Assembly: GCA_007922225.1 (NCBI GenBank)
Contig: ML679974.1
Coordinates: 1,057,657-1,121,656, forward strand
DNA length: 64,000 bases
Source of the DNA: Emydura subglobosa
Lineage: Eukaryota; Chordata; Testudines; Chelidae
Direction: 5' to 3'
Shown in pieces: positions 8,590 to 64,000 of the stretch; within the stretch, counting starts at the first letter, position 1, and the number at the start of each line of letters is the position of its first letter. A model generated the notes under the pieces. It was not told where the DNA came from. It worked only from the letters and a program-made list of their open reading frames with translations, and searched no databases. The position numbers were made by a program, and so were the translations under genes.

Positions 8590-8877
8590 TAACCAGAAGG
8601 ACAAATCATGGAGCAGGTCCTTAAGGAATCCATTTTAAGGCACTTGGAAGAGAGAAAGGTGATATACCTTGACTTTAGCAAAGCTTTTGATACGGTCTCT
8701 CACAGTATTCTTATCAGCAAGTTAAAGAAGTATGGGTTGGATGAATGGACTATAAAATGGATAGAGAACTGGCTAGAGCAGGGGTTCTCAACCGGTGGTA
8801 CGCGGAAGTCGGCTAGGTGGTACGTGAGGGAAAACTCGCCGCCGATTCCGCCGCCGAATCCCCCTCTCACCTCCGCC

Positions 8878-9120
8878 GATAAACCCTGCCGCTGCCGAAT
8901 CCCCCCCCTTGCTGCCACCGAAAAACCCTGCCGCCGCCGATTCCCCCCCCTTGCCGCCGCCGATAAACCCCTCCGNNNNNNNNNNNNNNNNNNNNNNNNN
9001 NNNNNNNNNNNNNNNNNNNNNNNNNNNNNNNNNNNNNNNNNNNNNNNNNNNNNNNNNNNNNNNNNNNNNNNNNNNCCCCCCCCCCGCCGCGAAACCCATT
9101 TGCCGCCGCAGAGAAACTGC
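8878..9120. repeat. 42-bp GC-rich tandem repeat running into an assembly gap
   Basis: The block AAACCCTGCCG recurs with starts near 8881, 8923 and 8965, an exact spacing of 42 bases. Similar CCGCCG-rich sequence continues past the gap to about 9120. Because 42 is a multiple of three, the array keeps an open frame on both strands, which explains the spurious proline/arginine-rich open frames across it. Confidence 0.85.
8976..9075. other. Assembly gap of 100 Ns
   Basis: Exactly 100 unknown bases are given, a customary placeholder for a gap of unknown size. It sits inside the GC-rich minisatellite, the likely reason assembly failed. Confidence 0.97.
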
Positions 9121-9933
9121 GCCGCCGCCAAAAGTCCCATCCTCTCTGCCGCCGAAAACTGGGAAACGGCGGCAGGGTTTCGGCGGAGGGCATCGATCCC
9201 TCCACGCAACCCCGCCATTTTACCGAGTCCTACTCGGGCCAGGTACAGTCAGGTGAAGCGGTACTTGACCCAACTGTACCTGACCCGAGTGGTACTCTGT
9301 AAAAAAAAAGGTTGAGAACCGCTGGGCTAGATCATAGGGCTCAACGAGTAGTGATCAATGGTTCCATGTTTAGCTGGCAACCGGTCACAAGCGGAGTGCC
9401 CCAAGGGTCGGTCCTGGGGCCGGTATTGTTCAACATCTTTATTAATGATCTGGAGGACGGGGTAGATTGCACCCTCAGCAAGTTTGCGGACGACACTAAG
9501 CTGGGGGGAGTGGTAGAAACCCTGGAAGGTAGGGATAGGATACAGAAGGACCTAAACAAAGTGGAGGATTGGGCCAAAAGAAATCTAATGAGGTTCAACA
9601 AAGATAAGTGCAGAGTCCTCCACTTAGGAAGGAAGAATCCCATGCACAGCTATAGACTGGGGACCGACGAGCTGGGCAGCAGCTCTGCAGAAAAGGACCT
9701 GGGGGTAACAGTGGATAAAAAGCTGGTTATGAGTCGTCAGTGTGCCCTGGTTGTCAAGAAGGCTAATAGCATATTGGGCTGCATTAGGAGGGGCATTTCC
9801 AGCAGGTCACGGGAAGTGATTATTCCCCTCTATTCGGCATTGGTGAGGCTGCATTTAGAATATTGTGTCCAGTTTTGGGCCCCCCACTACAAAAAGGATG
9901 TGGACAAGCTGGAGAGAGTGCAGCGGAGGGCAT

Positions 9934-11311
9934 CGGTTCAAACCCAGCCCAATTTGACACTGATGGCATCTATTGCCTAGGTAAAAGGAGTTGATGGCCT
10001 CCATCCACTTTCTTGTGCACAACAGCCAACATCACAAAAGCTATTATGACAACTGTCATTCTCATTAGCAATCTTAGAAGAGAATCTAGAAATGAATGAA
10101 CCTGGACGAGCTAATGCTGTATCTGGCCTGTGGATAATAGAAAGCGTAATTCTCTAGGGCTGTCAGAACCTTGCAGTGGAACTAAGCTGACTCTTTACAA
10201 ATGGTTAATTACAAAAATCTCAACTCAAAACAAAAGGCACAGCTTGAGGGTACAACTCATCAGCTCTTGGATCTGTACTTTTCAAAACCAAACACTATCA
10301 GTTGATGTACCATGTATATCAGCTCCTTAGAAGGTGACTTCATTAAGCACCACCTCAGTCAACTCAGTCAGTCACCTCAGGATTGGAGCTGGAAGCCTTG
10401 GTAATGAGGGAAGGTAATGAGGGGGGTTTTTGTAGTGAGGCATCAAAGCATGTACAGTCATTTTATATCAGGGAGAAAAAATAGCCTTATAATGAAGGTG
10501 CAGTCATTGAAGAGTAACATAGATTGCCCAGAGGCTGTCACTGGAAGCTGAGTGGGTGTATCTCATAGGATGAGCTAATACCACCTGGGCTGCGATCTTT
10601 GACTGAGACCAATACAACCTGTGTCTAAGGTATGGTAATTGTAATGTACACGCCCTAATTTTCTTAAAATAGGTCTCCCATCTTTAAACCTACACACACT
10701 ATAAGGCTGGTGTATGCCAGGCTTTCCTTTCACACCAAGCAAATTGCCTCCTTTTGCCTGTCCTTCAATGCAAAATCCCCCTTCGAACTTCTGATTAGTG
10801 CCATAGAAATCAGACCATCATTTTAAAATCAAGGACAGTATGTGCCAAAAAAAGCAGCAACAACAACAACAACAACAACAAAAGGCTTTTAAGATTCAGG
10901 GATATAAATAGCTCTAGCAAAAAGTTTTCTTGGCTGACATTGGCAACTATGCAGGGAGATTCACTCCAGATGCAGGACTGATAGATAGGAGGACCATCTT
11001 TGCTACACAGAAAGCAGGGAACTCCCGGACTGTGCTGAGGAGAGCATGGTGTTGCTGAGAGCTGCTGTTGAGACATTTGCAACTTGCTAAAACCGTGCCA
11101 ACAGCCAGTGTTGTTGTGCACCTTGTGCCAGAGGCAGTACATTGCTGCACTGATCACTGCAGGCAAACGCCTTTGAGAAGGGAGCCCAGGATGGAACGTG
11201 ATTCTGCTGATGACAAGTTGATATTTTAGGGCTCAGGTTCCTTTTGTTGGTTACCCTAGGACAGATTCACCAAGGAGATGTGATTCAGCCTTATGGGTCT
11301 GAAATAAAAGG
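9934..11311. other. Non-coding stretch with one microsatellite
   Basis: No gene was recognised. A (CAA)n run lies near 10854-10883. The junction with the CR1 fragment at about 9934 begins GGTTCAAACCC, which resembles a pol III B box but has no matching A box or tRNA fold. Confidence 0.4.
10854..10883. repeat. (CAA)n microsatellite
   Basis: About nine tandem CAA/CAG triplets are visible. Confidence 0.9.
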
Positions 11312-17640: not shown

Positions 17641-18211
17641 AAGGTTCTCACACACGGCGAGCCTTAGAGGAGGGTGACATGGGTGACTTCCCAGGGCGCC
17701 ATGACCTGGGGGGTGCTGTGGCCAAGAGGCAAGGAGTGGGGCGGGCCTGGGGTGCAAGGCTGTGGAAGGGAGCTCGGGGCAATGGGGAGGGCGGAAGCAG
17801 TGTGTTTAACTTGTGCTGGGGCTTGGCAGTTCATAGCCCTGGCACCTCTGGTCCTGGCCAGCAGCCACCACTCTCCAGTTGCTCAGGGCTGAAGGCAGCG
17901 CTGCTGCCAGCAGCAGTGCAGAAGTAAGGGTGGTGTGGTATTGCCTCTTACTTCTGAGCTGCTGCTGGCATCAGTGCTGCCTTCAGAGCTGGGTGCCCGG
18001 CCAGCAGCCCCCGCTCTCCTGCCTCCCAGCCAGTGCTTCATTTGTGCAGGAGCTTGCCAGGGCTGAGCTCCGGAACCTCTTTCATTACAAATTAAGCATG
18101 GGGGGAGGCAGCAGGGAACCTGGGGCAATGGGGGGGTTGGAGAGGGAGACAGCAGGGGCCAGGGGCACCAAAATACGAGTTTGTCCAGGGCCCCATTTTC
18201 CCTATGGCTGG
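17641..18211. mobile_element. GC-rich putative non-autonomous element(s), boundaries unclear
   Basis: The block is sharply more GC-rich than its flanks. It ends CAGGGCCCCATTTTCCCTAT then GGCTGGCCTG, whose reverse complement resembles CAGG-type hAT MITE ends. Inside it, 18031-18101 forms a small palindrome with ends CAGTGCTTCATTTGT and ACAAATTAAGCATG, so at least one element is nested. No clean target duplication was found. Confidence 0.45.
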
Positions 18212-22700: not shown

Positions 22701-24575
22701 AATTCTTCAGGGGTGGGATCCCCTTTCATGTCTGTTATCCTTTCCATTGTCCCTTTTTAAAGACATGTAACATGGGCCATTTAACCAATATGAACATGAG
22801 TTTCCTTTGTCAAGGTGGGTAGAAGGTGGGTGGGATTCGGAAGTTGGGGATGTTGTTTCCACTGCATCACATTTCAGATCTGCTCTGGTTCTTGCTGATA
22901 TTCTCTACCTTTTTCCAGTCCCGCCCCATCCTCAGGTGATAGGGCTTTTTATCCCCTGAGGCTGGGGAGGGACTGGAAAAAATTAACATCAAGCTGCTGT
23001 CTAGTTGTACACGTTGTAGTATATCTTTCCCTTCACCTAGAGCTTGTGTTGTGGTTGAAATAGGAATTCTTGGGCCTAGGCAGTGCAGGAGGGGTGGGGA
23101 AAAAAGATAGTAAGTCAGAGATGCACTTAGGTGTGCCTCATACTCCTTATGCATATAAACCACCTCCTGTATACAAGCCTTAGGTCACCAGGAATGCGGC
23201 AGTCCTCCAAGCAGGACTGAATGGGAGCTCTGAGTTGGGTTACCCTGAGATGTTGAGATCATCTTGAAACTGCCCAAGTGTCCCCATTTAACTGTCATGC
23301 AAATATGAAAGCACTTCCTTCTTAAAGGAGGAGTCACAAGGCAGATAGATCCATACTCCTGCAGGGCTTGAAAAAATTAACTGATGCCTTTTAACAGGCT
23401 GTTACCAAGTTGAGGAGGAGGGTCCCCAGCCACATCCGAATGCACGGTTTTGGTGCCATGTCTTCTGCTGAGAACTTTCTCAAACAGCAGTAGCAGTATG
23501 AAATGGATGCGATTCTTGGGAGTTTCAGTGCTGTTCTTGGGTTCCCAGTGATATCTGAAACTGAAGATATCTTGGTCAGTTTCATTTTTGCTGCTGGACA
23601 AAGCTAGGAGCTGCAGCAGAGGCAATGAAGCTGGGAAGACAGTTGCAGACTTGGGAAGTCACTTCTGACTGTCTGGCTTAGTCTATTATTGAATCAACTC
23701 ATGCCCCCTCTGCTCTGCCAACTTTAACATAGTAGTATGAATGTCCTTATTTTACTGGGTGCTGAGTGGTCATTGCAGTGAAGTATCTGAAAAAGAGAAT
23801 GGGAGAAGTATTGAAATTATCGGTGGTCACTAAGTAAGGTTACCGCCCCCCTTCGCCATACAGTTCCTAGCTCTCCATGCCATGGCATTGTAACTTCCCA
23901 ACACACCTCATTCCTGCTCTAGCAACCAATGTAAGAGCTGATATTCAAAGCAGTCTGTGATGTTTTAGCTGAGTCTCAACCAGCTGCTGCATTTGCCTAC
24001 GTAATTGCGGCACTGTTTCTAGCTTAGCACTCTGTAAAGTGCTTTGGGGTTCCTGGAACATGGAAATTTTAATATCAAACCAGTTCTTATTCTATTGTAT
24101 CTCCAGCTCACGACTGGCTATGACATCTCCTGGAGGCACCTAGTGCTCACTGGATGGATGAACTTCATGACTATGGACTGAAGAGTGATCTCCTTGGTGG
24201 AGCATGAAAAGCAGCCCTATAGAGAACTGCATACCTACTCTATCCCGCTGGCGGTAAGACTCCAGTTGAGTGGCTGCCTGTATTGCATTGTCTGTGTAGC
24301 ATTAACAGTATGCAAGACACTTAACACAGGCCTTCAATTAATCTTTCTGTACTACTTCTTGGTTCCTCTGTTTATGAACTGGGTTTCCTTTTGCCTGCCA
24401 TGTGCTGAAGCCTTGATAGAGTTGGAAGGCTGAAGTCAGCCAGTTCCCGCTGGAACTGGGACGGACTGGAACATCTAACCACTTTCTATGGAGGCTCACT
24501 GTGAAGGAAATTCAGGGACCTAGCATCACTGGTTATTGATCCTGAAGAGTGACAAATCTGACTGTTACTGACTGG
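19701..24575. other. Non-coding, intron-like stretch with little repeat content
   Basis: About 4.9 kb with no recognised coding exon. A diverged palindromic MITE may lie at about 20890-21000 (ATTTAAGCACGTGCCC and GCATATGCTTAAG). A MIR/L2-type tail (CTGTAAAGTGCTTTGGGG) lies near 24030. The paucity of transposons next to the CpG island is compatible with a first intron. Confidence 0.4.
19748..19778. repeat. (TTTG)n microsatellite
   Basis: Five tandem TTTG units are flanked by T runs. Confidence 0.85.
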
Positions 24576-35672: not shown

Positions 35673-38146
35673 CAGGGGTGTCCAAACTTTTTTCACCAAG
35701 GGCCATATGCGATAAAATACACAAACAGCCGGGCCACTCACTCGAGATGAAGTACGTATTGCCTCACCTGGTTTATTTAAGTAAACTAAATCAATCAGCC
35801 TACAACACTGCTTTTCATGAATGGGATTTTTTTTTTAGAACAAAAAAGGTTGGCAGTTCATTCTCAAAACAGCTGCCTCTGATTGCTTCTGGATGGTGGT
35901 CCTTCTTGACAGACCTGGAGGGGGTGGGGATATAAAATAAATTATATACTATATTTCAAGCTTGTTATGCAAATAAGTTTGGATTGTCAACAGATCAACT
36001 AATATTTGTTTTAAAAATGCTATCAACATAAAATGATTACATTTATTAAGTAATAGCGCTTAATAACACATGGAACGTGTAATATATTTTGAACTCAGGG
36101 GAACACGGTTGCGCTCAGTGGGAACAATGAAGTTGCGCTTTGGCCTGCAGGATTGCTGGCAGGTCCGGAGTCAGTTTTGTGGTTGAGATGCGAAGAACGT
36201 CACAGAGATGGTCGTTGGTCATTTTGGTTCTCAATCTGCTTTTGTTCAGCGTCATCAGAGAAAATGTTTGTTCACATATGTATGTTGAGCCGAACAGACT
36301 CATCATTCTTTTTGCGTGGCGTCTCATCAGAGGAAACTTGGCTTCTTCCAAGCTCCGGTAGAAGTCAGGTAAGGAGAGAAGCTGATGTTGATTCTTCAGA
36401 GAATCATCACACTGCATTTCTATAAGTTCTAATTGCAGACTCTCTTCCACTTCTTCTTCATTTATCATGAAGGGAGTCGCGAACAGCTTGATATCGTTCT
36501 CAATGGTAGAAAAATCTTGGAAGCGCTGAGAAAATTCTGTCATGAGAGATGTGATCACAGACACATATTTCCCCTTTTTATCAGTGAGATCGGCCTTTGG
36601 AAACGCAGATCTGATTTCGGACAATGTGGGGAAGTGCGCGACATTGAAGGTGCGCAACTGTGCCTCAAACAGTCAGAGCTTCACACAGAATGCTTTCATG
36701 TGTGCGTGAAGCTGCGGTACGAGTTGGTCTTTGCCTTGTAGGTTTTTGTTGAGTGTGTTGAGGTGTTCAGTGAGATCAACTAAAAACGCCAGGTCTGCCA
36801 ACCATAGAGGGTCACTCAGCTCGTGAAGAGGTCGGTCCTTTTCTTTCAAAAACTGGTCGATCTCTGATCTCAGAGAATAAAACCGCCGAAGCACGGAGCC
36901 GTGACTTAGCCAGCACACTTCTGAATGGTAGAGCAGGTCCCCATATTCAGCATCAACGTCAGTTAAGAAAGTTTGAAATTCTCTGTGGTAGAGTGCTCGT
37001 ACTCGAATTATGTTTACCGTTTTCACAACAGTGTTCATCACATCGCTAAGCTGTACTGTCTTGGCACAGAGTGCTTCTTGGTGGATGATACAGTGCATTT
37101 TAACTGCCTCACCTCCGCTCTCCTGCACCTTGGCACACACCATAGAGGCCATTCCTTTGCGCTCACCTGTCATAGCTGGAGCTCCATCTGTTGTAACTCC
37201 ACACAACTTGTCCCATTTAAGTCCTATCTTGTCAATTGCATTTGACACAGCTTCAAAAATGTCTTTACCTGTTGTTGTGGTATTTAGACTGCTGAGATCA
37301 AGCAGCTCCTCTGTAACGCAAAACTTATTGTCAACTCCCCGCAAAAAAATTAATAACTGTGCGGTATCTGTGGCATCTGTGCTCTCATCACATGCAATGG
37401 AGTAGAAATCAAAAGCACACGTTTTGTCTGACAGTTGATGTTTTATGTTGGCTGACAAGTCTTCGATTCGCTGCACAACTGTGTTTCTTGATAGGCTAAC
37501 GCTGTCGAATTCTTGACTTTTTTCTGGGCACATTATTCCTGCGACTTTAGTGAGGCACTGTTTTATGAATTCACCATCTGAAAAAGCCTTCCCATGCTGG
37601 GCAATGAGTTGAGCCACCTCATAGCTGGCTATTGTGGCATTTTCTTGAGTTTTTTTGGCACAGGAAAAATACTGTTGTTGAGCTAGCAAGATAGTTGTCA
37701 TCTGCTTAACCTTCTGTTCTCGTTCCACACCAGTGTAGGACATGTAGGTCTGATGTTTGGTTTCGTAGTATCGTCTTACATTGTACTCCTTCATCACTGC
37801 GACACTCTCATTACAAATCAAACACACACACTTCCCCTTGACTTCCATAAAGAAGTATTCATTTTCCCACCGTGTCTGAAATTTTCTACACTCGCTATCT
37901 TGTGTTTCTTTGGTGTTGTCATTTTCAGTGCGCTGTGGCAAAATTTTTCTTTCCTTAATTTTGTTTTGTAGAGGAACTGCCTTGATCAACTCAGTAGCTC
38001 CACCTAGAGTTAAAACCAAGAAGTGCAATACCGCCAGGTTTCATGTGCAGGCCATATTCTGGTATATTTTTGGAATTTGCTGCGGGCCAATTAAAAATGG
38101 ATCGCGGGCCGCAGTTGGCCCGCGGGCCGTAGTTTGGACACCCCTG
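35673..38146 (-). mobile_element. hAT DNA transposon, full length, with perfect TSD
   Basis: The element begins CAGGGGTGTCCAAACTTTTT and ends GTAGTTTGGACACCCCTG, giving terminal inverted repeats of at least 16 bp. The octamer GTCTAAGG stands on both sides (35665-35672 and 38147-38154), a perfect hAT duplication. The right subterminal region has repeated CGGGCC/GGCCCG words, of the kind transposases bind. Its 2474 bp hold one transposase gene on the minus strand. Structural integrity suggests one of the younger insertions in the window. Confidence 0.96.
36115..38043 (-). pseudogene. hAT transposase (GTF2IRD2/Charlie-like), one in-frame stop
   Basis: The protein cuts and pastes hAT elements. 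One continuous minus-strand frame runs from an upstream stop at 38043 to TGA at 36115, broken only by a TGA at 36673-36675. Counting from 38028: a BED-like zinc finger at residues 67-92 (CVCLIC...ETKH), first catalytic aspartate in ACDESTD (214), second in TTDGAP (281), the HCIIH motif (312-316), CWLSHG (tryptophan 373). After the stop come LFEAQL and the C-terminal hAT dimerisation region (LMRRHAKRMMSLFGSTYICEQ). No ATG lies before codon 61 (37848), so a start codon may be lost or lie in a spliced exon. The nonsense codon fits CGA to TGA decay. The sequence resembles the lineage that gave rise to GTF2IRD2 and related domesticated genes, but intact ends and target duplication argue for a transposon. 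A possible AATAAA signal lies at 36042-36047. Confidence 0.93.
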
Positions 38147-42044: not shown

Positions 42045-43222
42045 AATTACTGTGGAAGCTCCACAAGATCTACTCTTGTGGCTGTCTGGTTAATTTGTAC
42101 TTCCTACACTAGATCCTGTCATCTTAGCTTTAGAAAGGCTTCTGACACACTCCCAAATGACATTCTCATATGCAAAATAGGGAAATGGGGTCTAGATTAC
42201 TATGAGGTGGGTGCACAACTGGTTGAAAGACCATACTCAGAGTGGTTATCAAAGGTTTGTTGTTAAACAGGGAGGGAGTATCTGGTGGAATCCCACAGGG
42301 TCACTCCTATGTCTGGTACTATTCAATATTTTCATTAATTTACTTGGATAGGGGAGTGGAGAAGATGCTTATAAAATTTGCAGTTGAAAAGGATTGCAGG
42401 CACTTTGGAGGACAGGATTGGAATTCAAAACAGCCCAACGAATTGGTCTGAAATCAACAAGATGCAGTTAATAAAGACAAGTGCAAAGTATACACTTAGG
42501 AAGGAAAAAAATCAAATGCCCAACTATACAACGGAGAATTATTGGCTAGGTAGTAGCACTGCTGAAAAGGATCATGGGGTTATAGCGGATCACAAATTGA
42601 ATATGACTCAACAGTGTGGTGCAGTTGTGAAAAAGGCCAGCAGGGTTATATGTAAGACATGGGAGGTAATTGTCCCACTCTGCTCAGTGCTGGTGAGGCT
42701 CGAGTGGGGGTACTGTGACCAATTCTGGGCTACACACTTTTAAGAAAGATGGGGACAAATTGGCTGGAGTCCAGACGAGAGCAACAAAAAGGATAAAAGG
42801 TTTAGAAAACCTGATCTGTTAGGAAAGGTTTAAAAAAAACTGAGCACATTTAGTCTTGAGAAAAAGAAAAATGACTGAGGGGGGATCTGATGAGTCTTCA
42901 TATAAGTTAAGGGCTATCACAAAGAGGACAGGGGTCAGTTGTTCTCAGTCTCCACTGAAGGTAGGACAGGAAGTAATGAACTTAATCTTCAGCAATGGAG
43001 ATTTAGGTTGGACATTGGGAAAACTTTCTAGCTGTAATGGTAGTTAATCTCTGGAATAGACTTCCAAGGGAGGTTGTATAACTCGGTCATGAGAGGTTTT
43101 TAAGAACAGGTTGGCCAAAAACTTGTCAGGGATGGTCTAGGTTTATTTGGTGCTTCCTCAGTGCAGGGTCTGGACTAGATAACTTCTTGAGGTCCTGTCC
43201 AGCCCTAAGTTTCTGTGCTGTC
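42045..43222 (+). pseudogene. CR1 LINE ORF2 and 3' end, heavily decayed
   Basis: Fragments in shifting frames read SFRKASDTLPNDIL, GIPQGHSYVW, WLGSSTAEKDHGVI and MTQQCGAVVKKASRVI, then a diverged YSALVRPHLEYC region (CSVLVRLEWGYCDQFWA), and finally DLGWTLGKLSSCNGS. This is the order of the CR1 reverse transcriptase C-terminal half followed by the 3' end (GTGCAGGGTCTGGACTAGAT at about 43161). Frequent stops and frameshifts make it one of the oldest CR1 copies in the window. Its 3' end at about 43222 lies 0.4 kb before the DIRS element. Confidence 0.88.
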
Positions 43223-43603
43223 TCTTCTGTACATATTCATGGCACAAATCTGGCTGCTATTCTGTTGCTTCTTATTGTAACATAGTCTTATTTGTTTCCT
43301 GCAAGGAAACCCATCAGCATTTTGAGTTTGGTCCTGTAAGATATCCAATACTCACTTTTTTCAGAGGTCTTGTATGCATCCACCATTTCCCCCTCTCTCT
43401 GTTTTCTTTATTTGGAAAACAGCAGAAGTTTAAAAATTAGCCTTGTATACTTTTCCTGTTTCCATTCCTGCTCCATCCCCCTTTCGCAGTGTCCTGTGAT
43501 TTGATCTTGTCTCTTCAAGTATACATACTCTATCACAGATACTTCCTGCTTGGGCTGGTGGGGGATGGGATTTGATCAGGGGTCAGGGAAGAGGCAGCAT
43601 AAA
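43223..43603. other. Non-coding stretch, nothing recognised
   Basis: Sequence between the CR1 3' end and the DIRS left end, without a recognised feature. Confidence 0.4.
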
Positions 43604-43616
43604 GAACTACTGTTCC

Positions 43617-43836
43617 TTATCTGTAAGATAGGCACATTATAGATTCTCCCTTTGAGTGATTGCTCATATCCATTCCATTATAGGTGAGTGCGTGCCCCGT
43701 GCACAGATTCCCGGAACTTTTTTCCTCTTAGCAAGCCCTGTAGGGTCGGCTCAGGTGCCCCCTGGAGTACCGTGCTCATGCCGTGGTACGTAGGGCGCTG
43801 CCAACCCCGCGGGCCCTCAGTTCCTTCTTTCTGCCG
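43617..43836. repeat. DIRS left inverted terminal repeat
   Basis: This matches, in reverse complement, 49493-49712. Shared phrases include TGCTCATATCCATTCCATTA, CCCGTGCACAGATTC and GGTGCCCCCTGGAGTACCG. The match ends at TTCTTTCTGCCG. The outermost 40 bases are more diverged than the rest. Confidence 0.93.
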
Positions 43837-43963
43837 TTGGCGGTTGCTGGAACATTGCCTCTTGCTTTGCAAGTCGCAGCCCCTTAGTAGTTAGTGTTGT
43901 TTAGAAGCAGTTAAGTAATTAGGTAGTTAGGAAACCCTTGGGGGGTTTTCTTCGCGTTGGGCC

Positions 43964-46397
43964 ATGCCTGGCTCAACGGGTTTCAAACCGTGCACCAAGT
44001 GTGCCAAACCTGTCCCTGTGAGCGACCCTCACGATTGCTGCCTCCAATGCCTCGGGGAGCAGCACCGGAGGGACAAATGTAAGATCTGCAGAGCCTTCAA
44101 GCCCTGCACCCAGAAGGAGAGAGAGGCGCGGCTGAAGGCTATCCTCATGGAGTCCGCCCTCCGTCCTGACTCTGAACTGGCGTGTTCCCCTGCGGCACCG
44201 AGCGTATCCTCGGTGTGGAGCGCTCCTCCGGCACCGGCGTCGTCGAACCAGGGCCCGGCACCGAAGTGCCGCAAGGACTCCGTGCGCCGAGACTCCCCTG
44301 GACAGCCTACCCGGCCCCGGGGGAGTCAGGAGATGTCCCAGCCATGTGCTATCAAGATTACTCCGGCACCGGCATCTCCACGCAGGGAGCCTTCCCCGAC
44401 TCTGTGGAGTGGGGTAACGCCCTTGCAAGGGCCGTTGATGCCAGAGGCGTTCGCCGCGGCACGCGCCCTCATGGGCCTGCCCACGCCTCCGTCCCCCCCC
44501 TCGGCCGAGGGCTAGGGGACCTGCGTCTCGGGGTAAACCTGCGCTGGCTGCCCCTGGTGGTTGGCGGAGACAGGAGTCCAAGTCTCCCCCCAGACGGTCA
44601 AGGAGGGTAGAGAGTGCGGGCTCCCCTCCCAGCTCTGGCACTGAGTCCTTGAGCTCCTCAACACTGCGGCACCGAGGGCGGTCAAGGAGCTCATGGAGGG
44701 CTTACCTCCCAGTCCTCTGTGGAGAGCCCATCTCGGCACCGCAGCTCACGGCACCGGTCTCGATCCCTGGCACCCGGTGCGGCGCGGATCCCAGTGCCCT
44801 ACATCTCGATACTCACGATGCCGCCTCCGGCACCGGCTATTCCTCTGGCCCCGGCCCGCGCGACATCTCGTGGACGGTCCCACACCTCGCGGTCCCGTTC
44901 CTCTGGTCGGCACTGTTCTTCACGGTCCCGGTCTTCGTGTTGGCACCGGTGGCACCGCTCCCGCAGTGGGAAGTGTTGACGCAAGTCATTGAGAGGAAGA
45001 CATTCCAGCTCCAGTAGCTCCTCTCCACGCCGGCACTGGCATTTGCCTTCGTCATCCTCCAGGAGCCGCTCCCCCGCGAAGGGAAGTAAGTGGAGATCTA
45101 ATGGCTCCACATCCAGATCTCTGCACCGGGTGTCCCAGTCGGCACCGATGCCAACTTCAGCGTGGCCTCAGGGGCCTTGGCAGTGGCCATATTGGGGTCC
45201 CTGGGGTACACAGGTGGGCCAGGCTACCGCCTCGCTGCACTCTTCAGTGGCCCTGCCACCACCTTCTCCTACGACCCAGCAGGACAAGGGCCACCCCTCC
45301 GAAGGGGGATCAGATCCAGAGGAAGACCCCTCCACAGGGCCACTTCCTCAATCCTCCTCCTCATCCCCTGATGACGTCACCTCCCGGGACCGTAAGACTC
45401 CATTGCCTGACTTCAGAGCTCATCAGGATATGCTAAAAAGAGTAGCTAGCAACCTGAATCTAGAACTAAAGAAGTTCTCAGAGGAGGAGGACCCCCTATT
45501 CGGGGTTTCTGGGATGGTAGGCCCATCTAGAGTAGCCCTCCCCGTCCACGAGAGGGTGCTCAAGTTAGCAAAATCCCTTTGGCAACCCCCCACCTCGGTT
45601 TCCCCCTACTGCCAAGGGAGCCGAGAAGAAGTACTTTGTATCCACTGAGGGGGTTGAGTACTTATATAATCACCCTGCGTCATGCTCCTTAGTGGTGGAT
45701 GCGGTGAACCAGAGGGATAGACGGGGCCCAGGGTAACACCCCCAAGAATAAAGAAGCCAAAAAACTAGACCTGTTTGGCTGCAAGGTCTATACAATAGCG
45801 ACTTTGCAGCTGAGGATCCCGAACCCCCAGGCGCTCCTCGGGAGGTACAACCTCAACCTCTGGTCCTCACTGCAGAGACTTGCTGAGATCCTCCCGCAGG
45901 TTTTACCCCAGGATAAAGTGGCAGACTTCTCAACTGTCCTCGAGGAGGGTGCTGCGGTGGCAGGAGTGGCCTTACATTCCTCCAGCGACGTGGCGGACGC
46001 TGCCAGCAGAGTGATGGCCTCAGGTATAGTCATGAGACGATCCTCATGGCTCTAGTCGTCGGGGTTGTCCCAAGAGGCCCAGCAGATCATACAAGATCTC
46101 CCATTCGATGGTGCTGGCCTCTTTTCGGACAAAACCGATGACAAGCTGCATGCCCTGAAAGATTCTAGGGCTACGCTGCGGTCCCTAGGGCTCTGCACCC
46201 CACAGACCTCGAGGCGTCAGTCTCGGCCTCAGGCCCAGCGGCAGCCTCAGCCGCCTCCAAGGCAACCCCCCAGACCCGCTCAACCCAGGAGGGGTCGGGA
46301 GAGGTTGCGAGGTCCTAACCGCCGTGACCGCTCAGGTTCTTCGGCGGGGGCCCAGCAAGGCCCTAACAAGGGTCAAAATAATAAAAAATCCTTTTGA
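43964..46397 (+). pseudogene. DIRS gag-like gene, frameshifted
   Basis: The protein coats the element RNA. The frame opens at ATG 43964, about 130 bases after the terminal repeat. The N terminus has a cysteine/histidine cluster (CTKCAKPV, SDPHDCCLQCLGEQH, CKICRAF) at residues 12-46, a putative zinc-binding module typical of vertebrate DIRS gag. The first frame closes at 44515. A proline/serine- and basic-rich middle follows in several frames. The conserved downstream part reads MLKRVASNLNLELKKFSEEE (about 45430), IPNPQALLGRYNLNLW with LPQDKVADFSTVLEEG (about 45810-45950), and SQEAQQIIQDLPFDGAGLFS (about 46065), closing with an arginine/proline-rich tail at 46397. At least three frameshifts and one stop (at 46053) break it. 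Confidence 0.85.
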
Positions 46398-48318
46398 CAG
46401 TGCGCACGAGGGTGGCACTCTTCCTTTCCTCCTGGATCTCAACCGGCCCTTTGCCCACAGACTCAGGCTGTATTATGCCCACTGGCAAAGCATTACTTCG
46501 GACCGATGGGTCCTTGGTATAGTCCGCAGGGGCTATGCTCTACAGCTGACGGCCTTCCCTCTAGACTCCCCTCCTACCCAGTCCCTCTTCAGGAACCCCT
46601 CTCACGAGCAGCTCCTCACTCAGGAAGTCTGCTCCCTCCTGCAGCTAGGAGTGGTGGAAGAGGTTCCCCCACGGGAAAGGGGAAGGGGTTTTTATTCCCG
46701 GTATTTCCTAATCCCCAAGGCCGAGGGGGGTCTGAGGCCCATTCTAGATTTCTGCCATCTGAACAAGTTCATCAGATGCCTCAGGTTCCGGATGGTCTCC
46801 CTAGCCTCTATCATTCCTACCCTAGATCCAGGGGACTGGTATGCGGCCCTCGACTTAAAGGACACATACTTTTACATTTCTATCCTCCCAGGACACAGAA
46901 GGTTCCTACGGTTTATGGTATCTGGTGGCCACTACCAGTTTTCAGCCCTGTCCTTTGGCCTTTCATCCGCTCCCAGGGTATTTACAAAATGTATGGCGGT
47001 AGTAACGGCTCACCTGCACCGCAAGGGAGTTCAGGTATTCCCATACCTGGACGACTGGCTGATCCGGGGCAGGTCCAGAGCCCATGTCAGGAACTGGAGC
47101 TCACGTGCGCAGCGTGCACCAACCTGGGGCTACTCATCAACAAGCAGAAGTCCATTCTCACCCTGGTGCAGCGCATAGAGTTCATTGGGGCCACACTAGA
47201 TGCCACCCAGGTCAGAGCCTTCCTCCCAAGGCCTCGCTTCGAGGCAATGGCTGCCATAATAGACAACCTCCACAGGTCTCCCACGACAACAGCCAGGCGG
47301 TGCCTCCAGCTGTTGGGACACATGGCAGCCTGTATGTACGTGGTGAGGTTAGCTCACCTCAAACTCAGGCCTCTCCAGCTGTGGCTAGCATCAGTGTACA
47401 CCCCAGTCAGGCACCCTCTCAACAGGTTGGTCACATTGCCCACCCAGATATTGGCTTCCCTACTATGGTGGAAGGACCAAAGGGAGGTGTTGAAGGGAGT
47501 TCCCTTCAGGGAAGTACGTCGGTGACTTCGATCACAGATGCCTCAGATGTGGGGTGGGGAGCGCACATCACTGGCAACCTGAGCACCCAAGGGTGCTGGT
47601 CACCAGGCGAGATGTCCCTCCACATCAATGTCAGGGAACTCAGGGCAGTCCGCCTGGCATGCAAGGTCTTCCTCCAGTTCCTCAAGGGCAGAGTGGTACA
47701 GATCCTAACGGACAATACAGCAGCCATGTTCTACATGAACAGGCAGGGGGGAGCGCATTCCTCGGCCCTCTGCCAGGAGGCCATACAACTTTGGGACTTG
47801 GCGGTGGGACACGACTTTCATATATCTGCCTTTCACCTGCCGGGGGTCAGGAACGACGAGGCGGACCGCCTCAGCAGGTCGTTCCTTCCCCGACACGATT
47901 GGTCACTACACCCGGAGGTGGTAGCTTCCGTCTTCCGCAAGTGGGGTGTTCCCCAATTGGACCTGTTCATGTCGTCCTGGAACAGGAAATGCCAGAGGTT
48001 CTGCTCACTCCAGGGTCGCAAGCTGGGCTCCATCTCCAACGCGTTCCTTATAGACTGAACGGGGACCCTCATGTATGCGTTTCCCCCCATTCCCTTGCTA
48101 CCCAGAGTCCTCTTGAAGATCAAGAGAGACAAGGCAGATATCATATTGATCGCCCCAGCTTGGCCGAGACAGCACTGGTTCAGCATGTTGCTGGACCTGT
48201 CCATAGCCACGCCCCGCCACTCCTGAGGCGTTATGACCTGCTCTCCCAGGACCAGGGTCGTCTGCTCCACCCGGACCTGGACTCCCTCCACCTGACAGCT
48301 TGGAGACTCTGTGGCTGA
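46324..48318 (+). pseudogene. DIRS pol: reverse transcriptase and RNase H, frameshifted
   Basis: It copies the element RNA into DNA. It overlaps the end of gag in another frame. RT motifs include FLIPKAEGGLRPILDF (about 46707), YAALDLKDTYFYI with the first catalytic aspartate near 46853, FSALSFGLSSAPRVF, and the YLDDW active site at 47043-47058. The frame shifts once near 47085 and again near 47515. RNase H follows: ITDASDVGWGAH (about 47535), ELRAVRLAC, LTDNTAAMFYMNRQGG (about 47706) and NDEADRLSRSF (about 47852). A TGA at 48056-48058 replaces a codon in a conserved stretch, then GTLMYAFPPIPLLPRVLLK continues in the same frame. The last conserved block (HPDLDSLHLTAWRL) ends at 48318, overlapping the recombinase start. 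All catalytic acidic residues looked for are present; the lesions are two frameshifts and at least one stop. Confidence 0.93.
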
Positions 48319-49330
48319 CGGAGGGGGAGAGAGCCTGCTCCATGCAAGGACAGCAGGTCCTGCTTAGCAGCAGGAAACCTTCCACACAGGTGGTGTACCG
48401 AGCCAAGTGGAAGCGTTTTATGGGTTGGGCTCAGTCCGGGGGCATCCTACCAAGCTCCTCTCCAATACAGGTGATTTTGGAGTACCTTCTTCACTTGAAG
48501 CTGCAGGGCTTAGCCCTGGCCTCTCTTAGGGTGCACCTGGCGGCCATCTCGGCCTTCCACCAGCTGATGGAGGGCAGATCCTTATTTTCACACCCCATGT
48601 CAGCTAGGTTCCTCAAAGGGGTGGAGAGGCTATATCCCCAAGTCCATGACCCGGTGCCTCCCTGGGACTTGAACCTGGTCCTCACCATGTTGACAGGACC
48701 CCCCCTTCGAGCCCATGGCTACATGCCCGTTGCTCTTCCTCTCTTAGAAGGCATCCTTCCTAGTGGCCATTACATCGGCTAGTAGGGTCTCTGAGATAAG
48801 GGCTTTAACCTTGGAGCCCCCCTACACAGTCTTCTACAAGGATAAGGTCCGACTGAGGCCCCACCCGGCTTTCCTGCCTAAGGTGGTGTCTCAGTTTCAT
48901 TATAACCAGGATATCTTCCTCCCCGTGTTTTTTCCTAAACCGCATGGTTTGGAGGAGGAGCGGAGATGGCATTCGCTGGATGTCAGACGAGCCCTGGCCT
49001 ACTACATCAAGAGGGCCAGGCCATTCCGGAAGTCAACGCAGCTGTTCGTGGCTCACCTGTCTCCAGAGCATCTCCACCTGGATCACTGCCTGCATCAAGA
49101 CCTGTTATGAGCGGGCGAAGGTGCCGCTTCCAGGAGCTGTAACAGCGCACTCAACCAGAGCCCAGGCCTCATCGGCGGCCTTCCTGGGAGGAGTGCACCT
49201 GCAGGACATCTGCAAAGCAGCTATCTGGTCGTCGGTCCACACCTTTACATCCCACTATGCCATCGTACAGCAGGCGAGAGAGGACGCAGGATTCGGCAGG
49301 GCCGTCCTGGCAAGGGCGGTGCAACGCTGA
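48300..49330 (+). pseudogene. DIRS tyrosine recombinase, frameshifted
   Basis: The recombinase inserts the circular DNA copy; it belongs to the lambda-integrase/Cre-like family. The N-terminal SAM-like core domain reads STQVVYRAKWKRFMGWA and ILEYLLHLKLQGLALASLRV then HLAAISAFH (48390-48560). The catalytic domain starts near 48765 with ITSASRVSEIRAL, whose arginine is the first catalytic residue. AHSTRA at about 49147 supplies the H-x-x-R pair. IWSSVHTFTSHY at 49223-49258 carries the tryptophan, a histidine and the candidate nucleophilic tyrosine (49256-49258). The parts lie in three successive frames with shifts near 48765 and 49090. All canonical catalytic residues remain encoded. The gene ends 46 bases before the internal complementary region. 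Confidence 0.92.
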
Positions 49331-49375
49331 CTCCTACCCACCTCCAAGGTATGGCTATTTAATCACCTGTACTGG

Positions 49376-49462
49376 AATGGACATGAGCAATCACTCGAAG
49401 AGAGAAAACATGGTTACTTATCAGTAACTTGTTCTTTGAGATGTGTTGCTCATGTCCATTCC
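49376..49462. repeat. DIRS internal complementary region
   Basis: The first part (TGGAATGGACATGAGCAATC then ACTCGAAGAGAG) is the reverse complement of the outer part of the left terminal repeat (43647-43675). The second part (AAAACATGGTTACTTATCAG onward) is the reverse complement of the outer edge of the right repeat (49660-49712). In DIRS1-type elements this region is thought to serve as a template that joins the two ends into a circle. Confidence 0.88.
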
Positions 49463-49492
49463 ACACTCACCCTCCGTCCCCGCTGTCGGAGT

Positions 49493-49712
49493 CGGCAGAA
49501 AGAAGGGACTGTGGGACCGCGGGGTCGGCAGTGCCCTATGTACCACGGCATGAGTGCGGTACTCCAGGGGGCACCTGAGCTGACCCTACGGGGGTTGCTA
49601 AGGGGAAAAAAGTTCCAAGAATCTGTGCACGGGGTGCACACACACCTATAATGGAATGGATATGAGCAACACATCTCGAAGAACAACAGTTACTGATAAG
49701 TAACCATGTTTT
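49493..49712. repeat. DIRS right inverted terminal repeat
   Basis: This is the reverse complement of 43617-43836, from CGGCAGAAAGAAGGG to the edge near GTAACCATGTTTTC. Similarity is high over the inner 180 bases and weaker at the outer edge. Confidence 0.93.
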
Positions 49713-51782
49713 CCCTCTTGACCTTTCTTCTTCCCATGAAATTAAAATTAATTCAGGTTAACTTTCACTTAATTAATGTGCCTACTGCAAATGAATGGAC
49801 TCATGCAATTAACTTATCTTGCAGCATTTGAGATTCTTTAAAATTACTTGGAAATGTAGCTGTGTATGTGGCTTGAATTTTTAATTTATGTTAATAGTTC
49901 AGTTCTGAATTAATTAATTTTAAACGATGGGCCTTTGCTTCTTTAAAATAAAACACTTCTGTTTGTACAATTTAAAATGTACCTTTTTCCTTTCTAGCAA
50001 TATTGATTTTGAACCAAAAAAGGCATAAAATGTACTAAAAACATTGAAACATAGGAATAATCCCTGCCCCCCTGTACCTCCTCCAGTGCCTTATTTGTCG
50101 CAATGATTCAGGGGCATCGTAGGGTGTTTTGCATCAGTTCCGGATGCTCTCCCCAGATTGGGGGAGGGGGAGGGGGAGGGAAGGGGAAGGAGAAGAATTC
50201 TAAAGGCACCAGAATTCTAAAGGCAAATGATTATAGTGTGTTATATGGGCTTGGAGGAGCAAAGGCCACACTGTGGCTCTTTGCATGCCTTGTTTAGGGA
50301 TTGAGAGTGTGTGTTTGTGTGTAAAAACATGCCAAGGGATGCATGGAGTAAATACAGGTAGCAATCGTTCTTGAGTGTCTTGAAGATGGCTTCCTGCTTT
50401 CTAGGTAGGTAGCCTTCCAGTACCTAACTTAACTACTGCTCTCTTCTAATGTCCAGATGAGGCTAAATGATTCCATTTGTTTGGTATGTTTAGTGGGGAG
50501 GATTCAGACACCTTTGGGAAAATCAAGAGTGATTCTTGAATATTAATACTGATTTTTTTTACCTGTTTTTCAAAGACTTTTTTTTAATACATCCTTTTAA
50601 ACTGGGTTTAAAATGTTGTCCCCTGGGGAGCCTTAGCCACTTAGGAACCCAGGCAGCAGGTGCTGGGATCTGGATTAATGCTGGGATCTACGTAAGGTAT
50701 GGAGTATGAATTTAAGGCCCTGTTGGGGCTAGGGTTTGGATTAGACAGAATTGAAGTAATGGTGATTTGTCCTTGCAATGTTTAACCTCAAACCAACAGA
50801 AAACTTTTCATGGGCTGACCTCTTGTGATTTCTGCCATGGCATCGCTCGTCTAAGGTAGCCTCCATCTGAAGCCATAGCTTCCTGAGAATGGCTGTTCTT
50901 GGGTTGTTTAGGCAAGATGTGTACTGAAAACTGAACTGCCTTTCACTTCTGGCTCTGGCCTTGAAGCCCATACTAGAGGAGCACGTTGAGATCTAGGCAT
51001 GCAGATCCAAGAGCCTCTCCCCACTGAGATCCGAAGAGGTTCCAGTTTTGGCTCACCCCTACATGGGGTGGTTATTGGTGATGGTGGTTGAATATTCCTC
51101 TTGCAGTGTGCTGTGGTGAGTTCACCTAGTGCAATATAGGGTTCTGCTGGGGCATGGCGAGGTGCTGAACAGTTGTACCACCCATCACTTGCCCTTCAGA
51201 TAGGGGAGAAGAGGTTCTCTTTCATAACCAAACCTCTACCATCTCTGCCTTTGTGCTGAATCTCATTCTGAGGTGCAGCACTCTTTTTACACCCACATTT
51301 CCTGCTGTTCCCCACACACTTCATTTTACCTCAGTGTTTGAGTGTAAATAATTGATGCTGAACTTTAAAACAAGATTTTTTAACAGAATTCTCAGTGTGT
51401 CTTAAAGAAATGAACCTTGCATCATTTTATATATTTTCCTCCATTTGTTGTGTTTTTTTTATTCCTTAGCTTTGAGTCTTGGGGGGGGCGAGGGGGGAAA
51501 GGAGCATCTATTGACTTATTCTTCAGCAAGTGGCAGTAACTCAGTAGTTGATTCTGAACCAGTGAAAAGGGAAAACTCAGTCCATTATTTTTTTTAAATA
51601 GAGCAGGCAAGGAGGAGAAAGACTTAAAAAATATATATATATTCCTGTGGTGGAACTAAATATTTCAGATGTTCAGAAATTTTAGGGTTTTTTTTGAAAA
51701 AAGAATGTATTTTTCCTAAAAATGTGTTACTTATTATTACTATCTATTTTCCAAATAGGTTCCTTTCAAAATCAACTCAACT
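49713..51782. other. Non-coding stretch, AT-rich, nothing recognised
   Basis: No gene was recognised. It contains a purine-rich GGGGGAGG run at 50160-50190 and several T runs. Confidence 0.4.
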
Positions 51783-51889: not shown

Positions 51890-52527
51890 GCCTCCTGAAA
51901 CATGCTAGCACAGTGGATCATGATCTTACTAGCAGGAGTGTTATAAGCAAGACACAAGAAACAATTCTTCTGCTCTACTCCAAATTGATTAGACCTCAGT
52001 TGGAGTATAATGTCCAGTTCTGGGTTCCACGTTTCAGGAAATATGTGGATAAATTGGAGAAAGTCCAGAGGAGAGCAACAAAAATGATTAAAGTCTAGGG
52101 GAAAAAAAAGGTCTAGAACCCATGACCTATGAGGAAAGATTGAAAAAAATTGGATTTGTTTACTCTGGAGAAGACTGAGGGGGGACAAAAGTTTTCAAAT
52201 ACATAGAGGATTGTTTCAAGGAGGAGGGTGAAAAATTGTTCTCGTTAACCTTTGAAGCTAGGACAGGAAGCAATGGGTTTAAATTGCAGCAAGATTAATT
52301 TAGGTTGGACATTAGGAAAAACTTCCTAACTGTCAGGGTAGTTAAACACTGGCCCAAATTGCCTAAAGTGGATGTGGAACCTCCATCATTGGAGGTTTTT
52401 AAGAACAGGTTAGAAAAACACCTGTCAGGGATGGTCTAGTTATTAAGTAGCCAAGCCGTGAGTGCAGGGGACTGGACTAGATGAACTCTCAAGGTCTCTT
52501 GCAGTCCTACACTTCTATGATTCTATG
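51890..52527 (+). pseudogene. CR1 LINE ORF2 C terminus and 3' end
   Basis: The frame at 51913-52098 reads LLLYSKLIRPQLEYNVQFWV and KLEKVQRRATKMIK, the conserved C-terminal end of CR1 ORF2. It then continues in decayed form (GLFTLEKT-like) to a 3' UTR with AGGTTGGACATTAGGAAAAA, CTTCCTAACTGTCAG and the terminal GGACTAGATGAACTCTCAAG, closing on two copies of TTCTATGAT/TTCTATG. The 8-bp terminal microsatellite is diagnostic of CR1 3' ends. The copy is 5'-truncated, as usual. Confidence 0.92.
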
Positions 52528-63791: not shown

Positions 63792-64000
63792 AATCATAGA
63801 AAATGAGGACTGGAAGGGACCCCAGGATGTATCTAGTCCAACTCCCTGATCAAAGCAGGATCAACCCCAAGTAAATCATCCCAGCCAAGGCTTTGTCAAG
63901 CCAGGTCTTAAAAACCTCTAAGGATGGAGATTCCACCACCTCCCTAGGTAACCCATTCCAGTGCTTCACCACCCTCCTAGGGAAAAAGTTTTTCCTAATA
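63792..64000 (-). repeat. CR1 LINE 3' end, minus strand, continuing past the window
   Basis: AGAATCATAGAAAATGAGGA then CTGGAAGGGACCCCAGGATG, ATCTAGTCCAACTCCCTG and CCTAGGGAAAAAGTTTTTCC are the classic antisense CR1 3' UTR. The 3' end is at about 63792 and the element extends beyond the right edge. Confidence 0.93.

What the first reader, a model, noticed from the sequence alone, without database searches (positions are those of the whole stretch)
43604..49712. Structurally complete DIRS retrotransposon with inverted ends and an internal complementary region
Seen directly: inverted repeats at 43617-43836 and 49493-49712, and an internal segment (49376-49462) complementary to the outer edges of both. 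Gag, RT (YLDD), RNase H and a tyrosine recombinase lie between them in the expected order. Established: this layout defines DIRS1-type elements, which replicate by a circular intermediate without LTRs or DDE integrase. It is the most unusual genetic system in the window. Inference: the copy is dead (several frameshifts and stops), but all catalytic residues are still encoded, so it decayed fairly recently.
Basis: partly seen in the sequence, partly recalled or inferred. Interest (0 to 1): 0.75.

Follow-up and report, generated by a model that had tools for sequence, protein, structure and literature searches.

The report
Dead turtle DIRS1-like retrotransposon copy
This is a broken but structurally complete copy of a known kind of jumping gene (DIRS1-like) in what looks like a turtle genome; it is a textbook example rather than a new system.

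Summary
Confirmed, with corrected edges. A 6.07-kb DIRS1-like retrotransposon lies at about 43650-49719. Its inverted termini match at 90% (43660-43836 / 49493-49669), and an internal complementary region (ICR, 49363-49463) pairs with both outer edges, far above chance (scores 63 and 110; null maximum 27). CTT at both ends with AAG in the ICR fits the published junction pattern, but a 9-nt overlap leaves the exact junction unproven. Protein relatives are turtle; the closest RNase H-MT one is from Emydura (75%). The copy is dead: pol, YR and gag all carry stops or frame breaks. 'Recently decayed' is not supported: ends and ICR differ at 7 of 104 sites, about 16-70 million years under assumed rates (interval 6-153). 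DIRS1-like elements with inverted repeats are already published for turtles, so this is a new member of a known kind. By-product: the MT domain is a phage Dam relative whose motif-IV Asn is Phe or Tyr in 49 of 53 aligned relatives. Host-genome searches did not complete.

The parts
43650..49719 (+). DIRS1-like retrotransposon, whole copy (6070 bp; the edges could instead be 43644 and 49713)
43650..43836 (+). left inverted terminal repeat (43660-43836 is 90% complementary to the right repeat; 43650-43659 is matched by the ICR)
49493..49679 (-). right inverted terminal repeat (49493-49669 is 90% complementary to 43660-43836; 49670-49679 assigned by position only)
49680..49719 (+). right extension (rE), about 40 nt, complementary to the ICR; its inner boundary is set by position only
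49363..49400 (-). left part of the internal complementary region (pairs with the left end)
49398..49463 (-). right part of the internal complementary region (pairs with the right end and its extension)
49398..49400 (+). putative 3-bp circular junction AAG (overlap of the two ICR parts; start CTT, end CTT); ambiguous within a 9-nt overlap
   Evidence: convention from PMC3266345 Table 3
43964..46397 (+). gag remnant in several frames: N-terminal Cys-rich piece 43964-44515; LAP2alpha-like C-terminal piece 45708-46397 with an in-frame TAG at 46053-46055
   Evidence: the N-terminal part was placed by reading the frames, not by a relative
46393..47510 (+). reverse transcriptase (YLDD at 47044-47055), broken by a frame change at about 47.07-47.12 kb and another near 47.51 kb
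47519..47878 (+). RNase H (TDAS, RELRA, TDN, EADRLSR)
   Evidence: fold of relative P0131
47879..48318 (+). Dam-like methyltransferase (MT) domain and end of pol; in-frame TGA at 48056-48058, frame change near 48.215 kb; end of pol frame at 48316-48318
48237..49330 (+). tyrosine recombinase: SAM-like domain in a frame that overlaps pol, catalytic part with R (48781-48795), HSTR (49148-49159) and HTFTSHY (49238-49258); frame changes between 48563 and 48703 and near 49.06 kb, in-frame TAG at 48745-48747

Best explanation
It is an inactivated but end-to-end copy of a DIRS1-like retrotransposon in what is probably a turtle genome. In its active ancestor, an RNA that begins in the left repeat and ends in the right repeat would have been copied by the RT/RNase H. 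The internal complementary region would have brought together and restored the two outer ends as a circle. The tyrosine recombinase would then have inserted the circle at a short matching sequence (here probably CTT), without target-site duplication. Shown here: terminal repeats, ICR pairing, right extension, junction-like trinucleotides, gene order, and catalytic motifs in broken frames. Inferred from published models of DIRS1: RNA intermediate, circle and recombinase-mediated insertion. The copy has since drifted: pol and YR are each split by stops and frame changes, and gag is split too.
For: ITRs of 177 nt at 90% and ICR pairing with both ends far above chance. Sizes fall inside or near the published table: length 6070 against 3793-6283 bp; ICR 38+66 against 40+58, 39+60, 43+61 and 41+65 in the Anolis and Xenopus rows; start CTT and junction AAG as in AcDIRS1, whose end however is CAT, not CTT. 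RVT_1 E 1.2e-9; 530 RT relatives at E 1e-3, of the 120 listed the best named ones are from turtles. RNase H-MT 75% identical to a protein of Emydura macquarii, E 2.3e-116, a side-necked turtle. YR relatives of Chelydra, Chrysemys, Mauremys and Pelodiscus align with the window's HSTR and Tyr region (the Mauremys protein reads HFAR). RT placed with turtle proteins, 99/89. Gag piece has a weak LAP2alpha match, E 0.008, below cut-off, in line with the published turtle DIRS gag (PMC4495291 passages). 43600-43652 and 49700-49760 share no exact word longer than 5 nt.
Against: No sister copy or empty site could be examined, because the genome search did not complete. The Pfam matches of the YR (E 0.0058 in the window piece; 0.0018 in relative P0125), of the window's RNase H and of MT are below their cut-offs. 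A fold prediction of P0125 was too poor to use (pLDDT 60, no match at E 0.001). The exact 3-bp junction is not unique within a 9-nt overlap.
Confidence: 0.97

Rival explanations
1. Another tyrosine-recombinase retrotransposon (PAT-like or Ngaro-like) rather than DIRS1-like.
For: RT/RNase H and a YR are shared by elements of the DIRS order; the YR pieces alone do not decide, and no curated Ngaro or PAT reference was compared.
Against: Ngaro and Viper lack the MT domain (PMC3266345 passage) and PAT-like elements have split direct repeats (that passage was cut; partly recalled). Here the repeats are inverted with an ICR and an MT domain is present.
Confidence: 0.02
2. A Gypsy/Ty3-type LTR element or retroviral remnant with fortuitous inverted repeats.
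For: Ty3 RT is the best solved-structure relative of the RT by sequence (E 6.1e-9).
Against: No direct repeat longer than 30 nt among the 20 families shown of 26, so no LTRs. A tyrosine recombinase lies at the 3' end. RTs of proteins found through the RNase H-MT search match better than Ty3 (for instance 172 bits by BLAST for P0143, against 38.6 bits by phmmer for Ty3; different programs and databases, so only a rough comparison).
Confidence: 0.005
3. A chimaera of two nested or recombined DIRS copies that only looks complete.
For: The left end differs from the ICR more (4 of 38) than the right end does (3 of 66), and left and right repeats differ by 10%.
Against: The counts are small; all domains are present once, in order and collinear with turtle proteins.
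Confidence: 0.03

Closest known systems
DIRS1-like elements of turtles (Chrysemys picta, Pelodiscus sinensis; PMC4495291, passages read)
   Same: ITRs, LAP2alpha-like gag, then RT, RNase H and phage-integrase-like YR; same host group as the best protein relatives
   Different: Different copy and probably different species; the passages read give no sequence and do not mention an ICR or MT domain
AcDIRS1 and AcDIRS2 of Anolis carolinensis (PMC3266345 Table 3, section read)
   Same: CTT start and AAG junction (AcDIRS1), length 5.9-6.0 kb, right extension only, ICR 40+58 / 39+60
   Different: AcDIRS1 ends in CAT, here CTT; here the ITR is longer (187 against 162-166 nt), the right extension is longer (about 40 against 26-28 nt), and the copy is broken
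Emydura macquarii uncharacterized protein (P0131)
   Same: RNase H-MT protein, 75% identical over 98% of the searched part; ends at the same codon as the pol frame here
   Different: Open frame there; broken by a stop and frame changes here

Membership tests
DIRS1-like retrotransposon | Inverted terminal repeats | tested here: met
   177 nt, 90% complementary
DIRS1-like retrotransposon | ICR near the 3' end complementary to both outer ends | tested here: met
   scores 63 and 110 against a null maximum of 27 in 2951 random pairs
DIRS1-like retrotransposon | Right (or left) extension complementary to the ICR only | tested here: met
   about 40 nt, 49680-49719, matched by the ICR and outside the left-right match
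DIRS1-like retrotransposon | 3-bp circular junction complementary to the terminal trinucleotides | tested here: inconclusive
   AAG with CTT at both ends fits, but a 9-nt overlap allows other registers
DIRS1-like retrotransposon | RT and RNase H of DIRS type | tested here: met
   RT and RNase H with turtle and MT-linked relatives, RNase H fold of P0131; no curated Ngaro or Gypsy sequences in the tree
DIRS1-like retrotransposon | MT domain after RNase H | tested here: met
   window piece matches Pfam Dam at E 0.011, below cut-off; 11 of 53 relatives match Dam and 15 of 53 a PHROG DNA methyltransferase at E 0.01; hhalign probability 87%, E 4e-6 against six phage Dam proteins
DIRS1-like retrotransposon | Tyrosine recombinase with R, HxxR and Tyr | tested here: met
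   motifs at 48781-48795, 49148-49159 and 49238-49258, aligned to turtle YR proteins; Pfam matches below cut-off and fold test uninformative
DIRS1-like retrotransposon | No target-site duplication | tested here: inconclusive
   no exact shared word above 5 nt between 43600-43652 and 49700-49760, but an inexact 9-nt overlap of the ends; no empty site available
DIRS1-like retrotransposon | Circular DNA intermediate and YR-mediated insertion | not testable with these tools
   needs an active copy and experiment
Ngaro-like | Split direct repeats, no MT domain | tested here: not met
   inverted repeats and ICR, MT present; MT absence in Ngaro from PMC3266345, its split repeats recalled

The most novel reading that the evidence does not exclude
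The conserved 'methyltransferase' of DIRS1-like elements is a phage Dam relative that has lost the motif-IV Asn (NPP became [F/Y]PP in 49 of 53 aligned relatives; N, D or S in none). It would then be a fixed pseudo-methylase with another job, for example DNA or nucleoprotein binding, rather than an adenine methylase.
Probability: 0.4. Interest if true: 0.4.

Novelty: new member of a known kind. Interest (0 to 1): 0.17.

Why it matters
As a single dead copy it adds little. It documents a complete set of DIRS termini in a probable turtle, perhaps a side-necked one. It also prompts one testable point about the whole superfamily: whether the unexplained MT domain can still methylate.

Tried and rejected
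Recent decay: not supported. Under the rule that extensions and ends match their ICR at insertion (PMC3266345: 'theoretically 100%'), 7 of 104 sites differ (Jukes-Cantor 0.071; Poisson range 0.028-0.153). With assumed rates of 0.5-2.2e-9 per site per year this gives point estimates of 16-70 million years and a full range of 6-153. The rates are recalled assumptions; [quoted passage not shown]

Sister copies outside the host genome: exact patterns of the right end gave 0 matches in viral contigs and 0 in genome contigs. The RT gave 4 pattern matches in viral contigs, none confirmed. The ICR-right end gave no match in phages. This is as expected for an animal element, since these collections hold no animal genomes.

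Fold search of the YR relative P0125: model too poor. Fold search of RNase H-MT: the RNase H part filled the lists, so nothing is concluded about the MT fold. Gag piece in solved structures: only Tob1 at E 0.22, no LAP2alpha. YR relative P0125 in solved structures: no match at E 1. tblastn of P0131 against phages gave 110 records; the rows listed were annotated as DNA methyltransferases but none was significant (best listed E 0.9). NCBIfam phage_N6A_met only E 0.094. Rfam: no match in the window. Literature: 0 papers for DIRS + DPPY and 0 for DIRS + retrotransposon + methyltransferase + catalytic motif; PMC2685390 was seen in passages only. Most subscription papers are not in that library.

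Full report
What is there. The window holds a DIRS1-like element at about 43650-49719. Repeat finding and gapped alignment give an inverted pair 43660-43836 / 49493-49669 (177 nt, 90%). An internal segment pairs with the left end (49363-49406 with 43644-43687, 44 nt, 5 mismatches) and with the right end (49398-49463 with 49652-49719, 66 compared sites, 3 mismatches and a 2-nt gap). Random pairs of 101-nt pieces of the same window reached a local score of at most 27 in 2951 trials, against 63 and 110 here.

Termini. The published survey of DIRS1-like elements (PMC3266345, section with Table 3 read) reports that 23 of 28 elements begin and end with NTT, in almost all complementary to a 3-bp circular junction. 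By that rule this element starts with CTT at 43650 and ends with CTT at 49719, and its two ICR parts overlap on AAG at 49398-49400. AcDIRS1 of Anolis has start CTT, end CAT and junction AAG. The length is 6070 bp, the ICR parts 38 and 66 nt, the right extension about 40 nt. The left and right ends overlap in circle register over nine nucleotides (TTCTCCCTT / TTCCCTCTT, read), so the junction cannot be pinned to three bases from one copy. 43600-43652 and 49700-49760 share no exact word longer than five bases, in line with insertion without target-site duplication, but no empty site was available.

Damage. Comparison with turtle proteins by tblastn (12 proteins) shows frame changes in pol at about 47.07-47.12 kb, near 47.51 kb and near 48.215 kb, and a TGA at 48056-48058. 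In YR there are frame changes between 48563 and 48703 and near 49.06 kb, and a TAG at 48745-48747. In the gag C-terminal piece there is a TAG at 46053-46055. The upstream part of gag lies in several frames by the ORF list, but no relative was aligned there. The change from the pol frame to the YR frame at 48237-48318 is probably not damage: P0131, P0132 and P0135 end at the same codon (P0133 and P0134 do not), so the two frames seem to overlap by nature.

Age. If ends equalled their ICR at insertion, 7 of 104 differences give a distance of 0.071 (0.028-0.153), about 16-70 million years under assumed rates and 6-153 over the whole interval. CpG observed/expected is 0.53 in the element (G+C 58%) against 0.27 and 0.19 in the flanks (G+C 47% and 44%), so it is not at equilibrium either. 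The claim of recent decay is not supported.

Host. The best named relatives by protein are turtles; the closest RNase H-MT relative is from Emydura macquarii (75%), in Pleurodira. A turtle, perhaps a side-necked one, is an inference.

Side result on the MT domain. The MT domain aligns to phage Dam methylases by profile: score 41.8, probability 87%, E 4e-6, against a maximum of 17.0 in 20 column shuffles. 15 of 53 relatives match a PHROG DNA methyltransferase and 11 of 53 match Pfam Dam at E 0.01; single-sequence searches were not significant. The six aligned phage proteins all read NPP, and hhalign pairs this N with the F of YAFPP. In the 53 DIRS relatives the position is F in 43, Y in 6, L, Q and H once each and a gap once; never N, D or S. 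The window copy reads YAFPP at 48074-48088. That N, D or S is needed there for adenine methylation is recalled knowledge. The function of the DIRS MT is stated to be unknown in PMC3266345 (passage). Two searches of the held library found no paper on this point.

Verdict. The element is an ordinary, inactive member of a known superfamily in a host group where it is already reported.

Noticed in passing
48074-48088 and relatives: Motif IV of the Dam-like MT domain reads [F/Y]PP instead of NPP in 49 of 53 DIRS relatives (N, D or S in none).
   Followed up: partly
36118-38040, minus strand: hAT-like transposase remnant in two stop-separated pieces of 455 and 185 aa (zf-C2H2_12 E 9e-11, DUF4371 E 2e-6, hAT dimerisation E 5e-4, the last two below cut-off).
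   Followed up: partly
8593-9977, plus strand: LINE reverse transcriptase (RVT_1 E 2e-14 in 9303-9977; CR1-like by recall) next to a GC-rich tandem repeat (8848-8970) and a 100-base N gap at 8976-9075, perhaps an assembly gap at a hard repeat.
   Followed up: no
42703-43217, 51998-52509, 63794-64000 (minus): Related repeats of about 70% identity that look like CR1 3' ends (recalled, not tested); the first ends about 430 bases left of the DIRS element.
   Followed up: no
17889-17986 and 22910-22981: Imperfect self-complementary stretches (79-81% self-inverted match), possibly short DNA-transposon relics.
   Followed up: no
proteins P0047, P0122, P0128, P0185: Turtle gene models named serum response factor, NADH dehydrogenase iron-sulfur protein 6, ZSCAN29 and glypican-1-like contain stretches similar to the DIRS RT, YR, YR and RNase H-MT: perhaps annotation chimaeras or exonised elements.
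   Followed up: no
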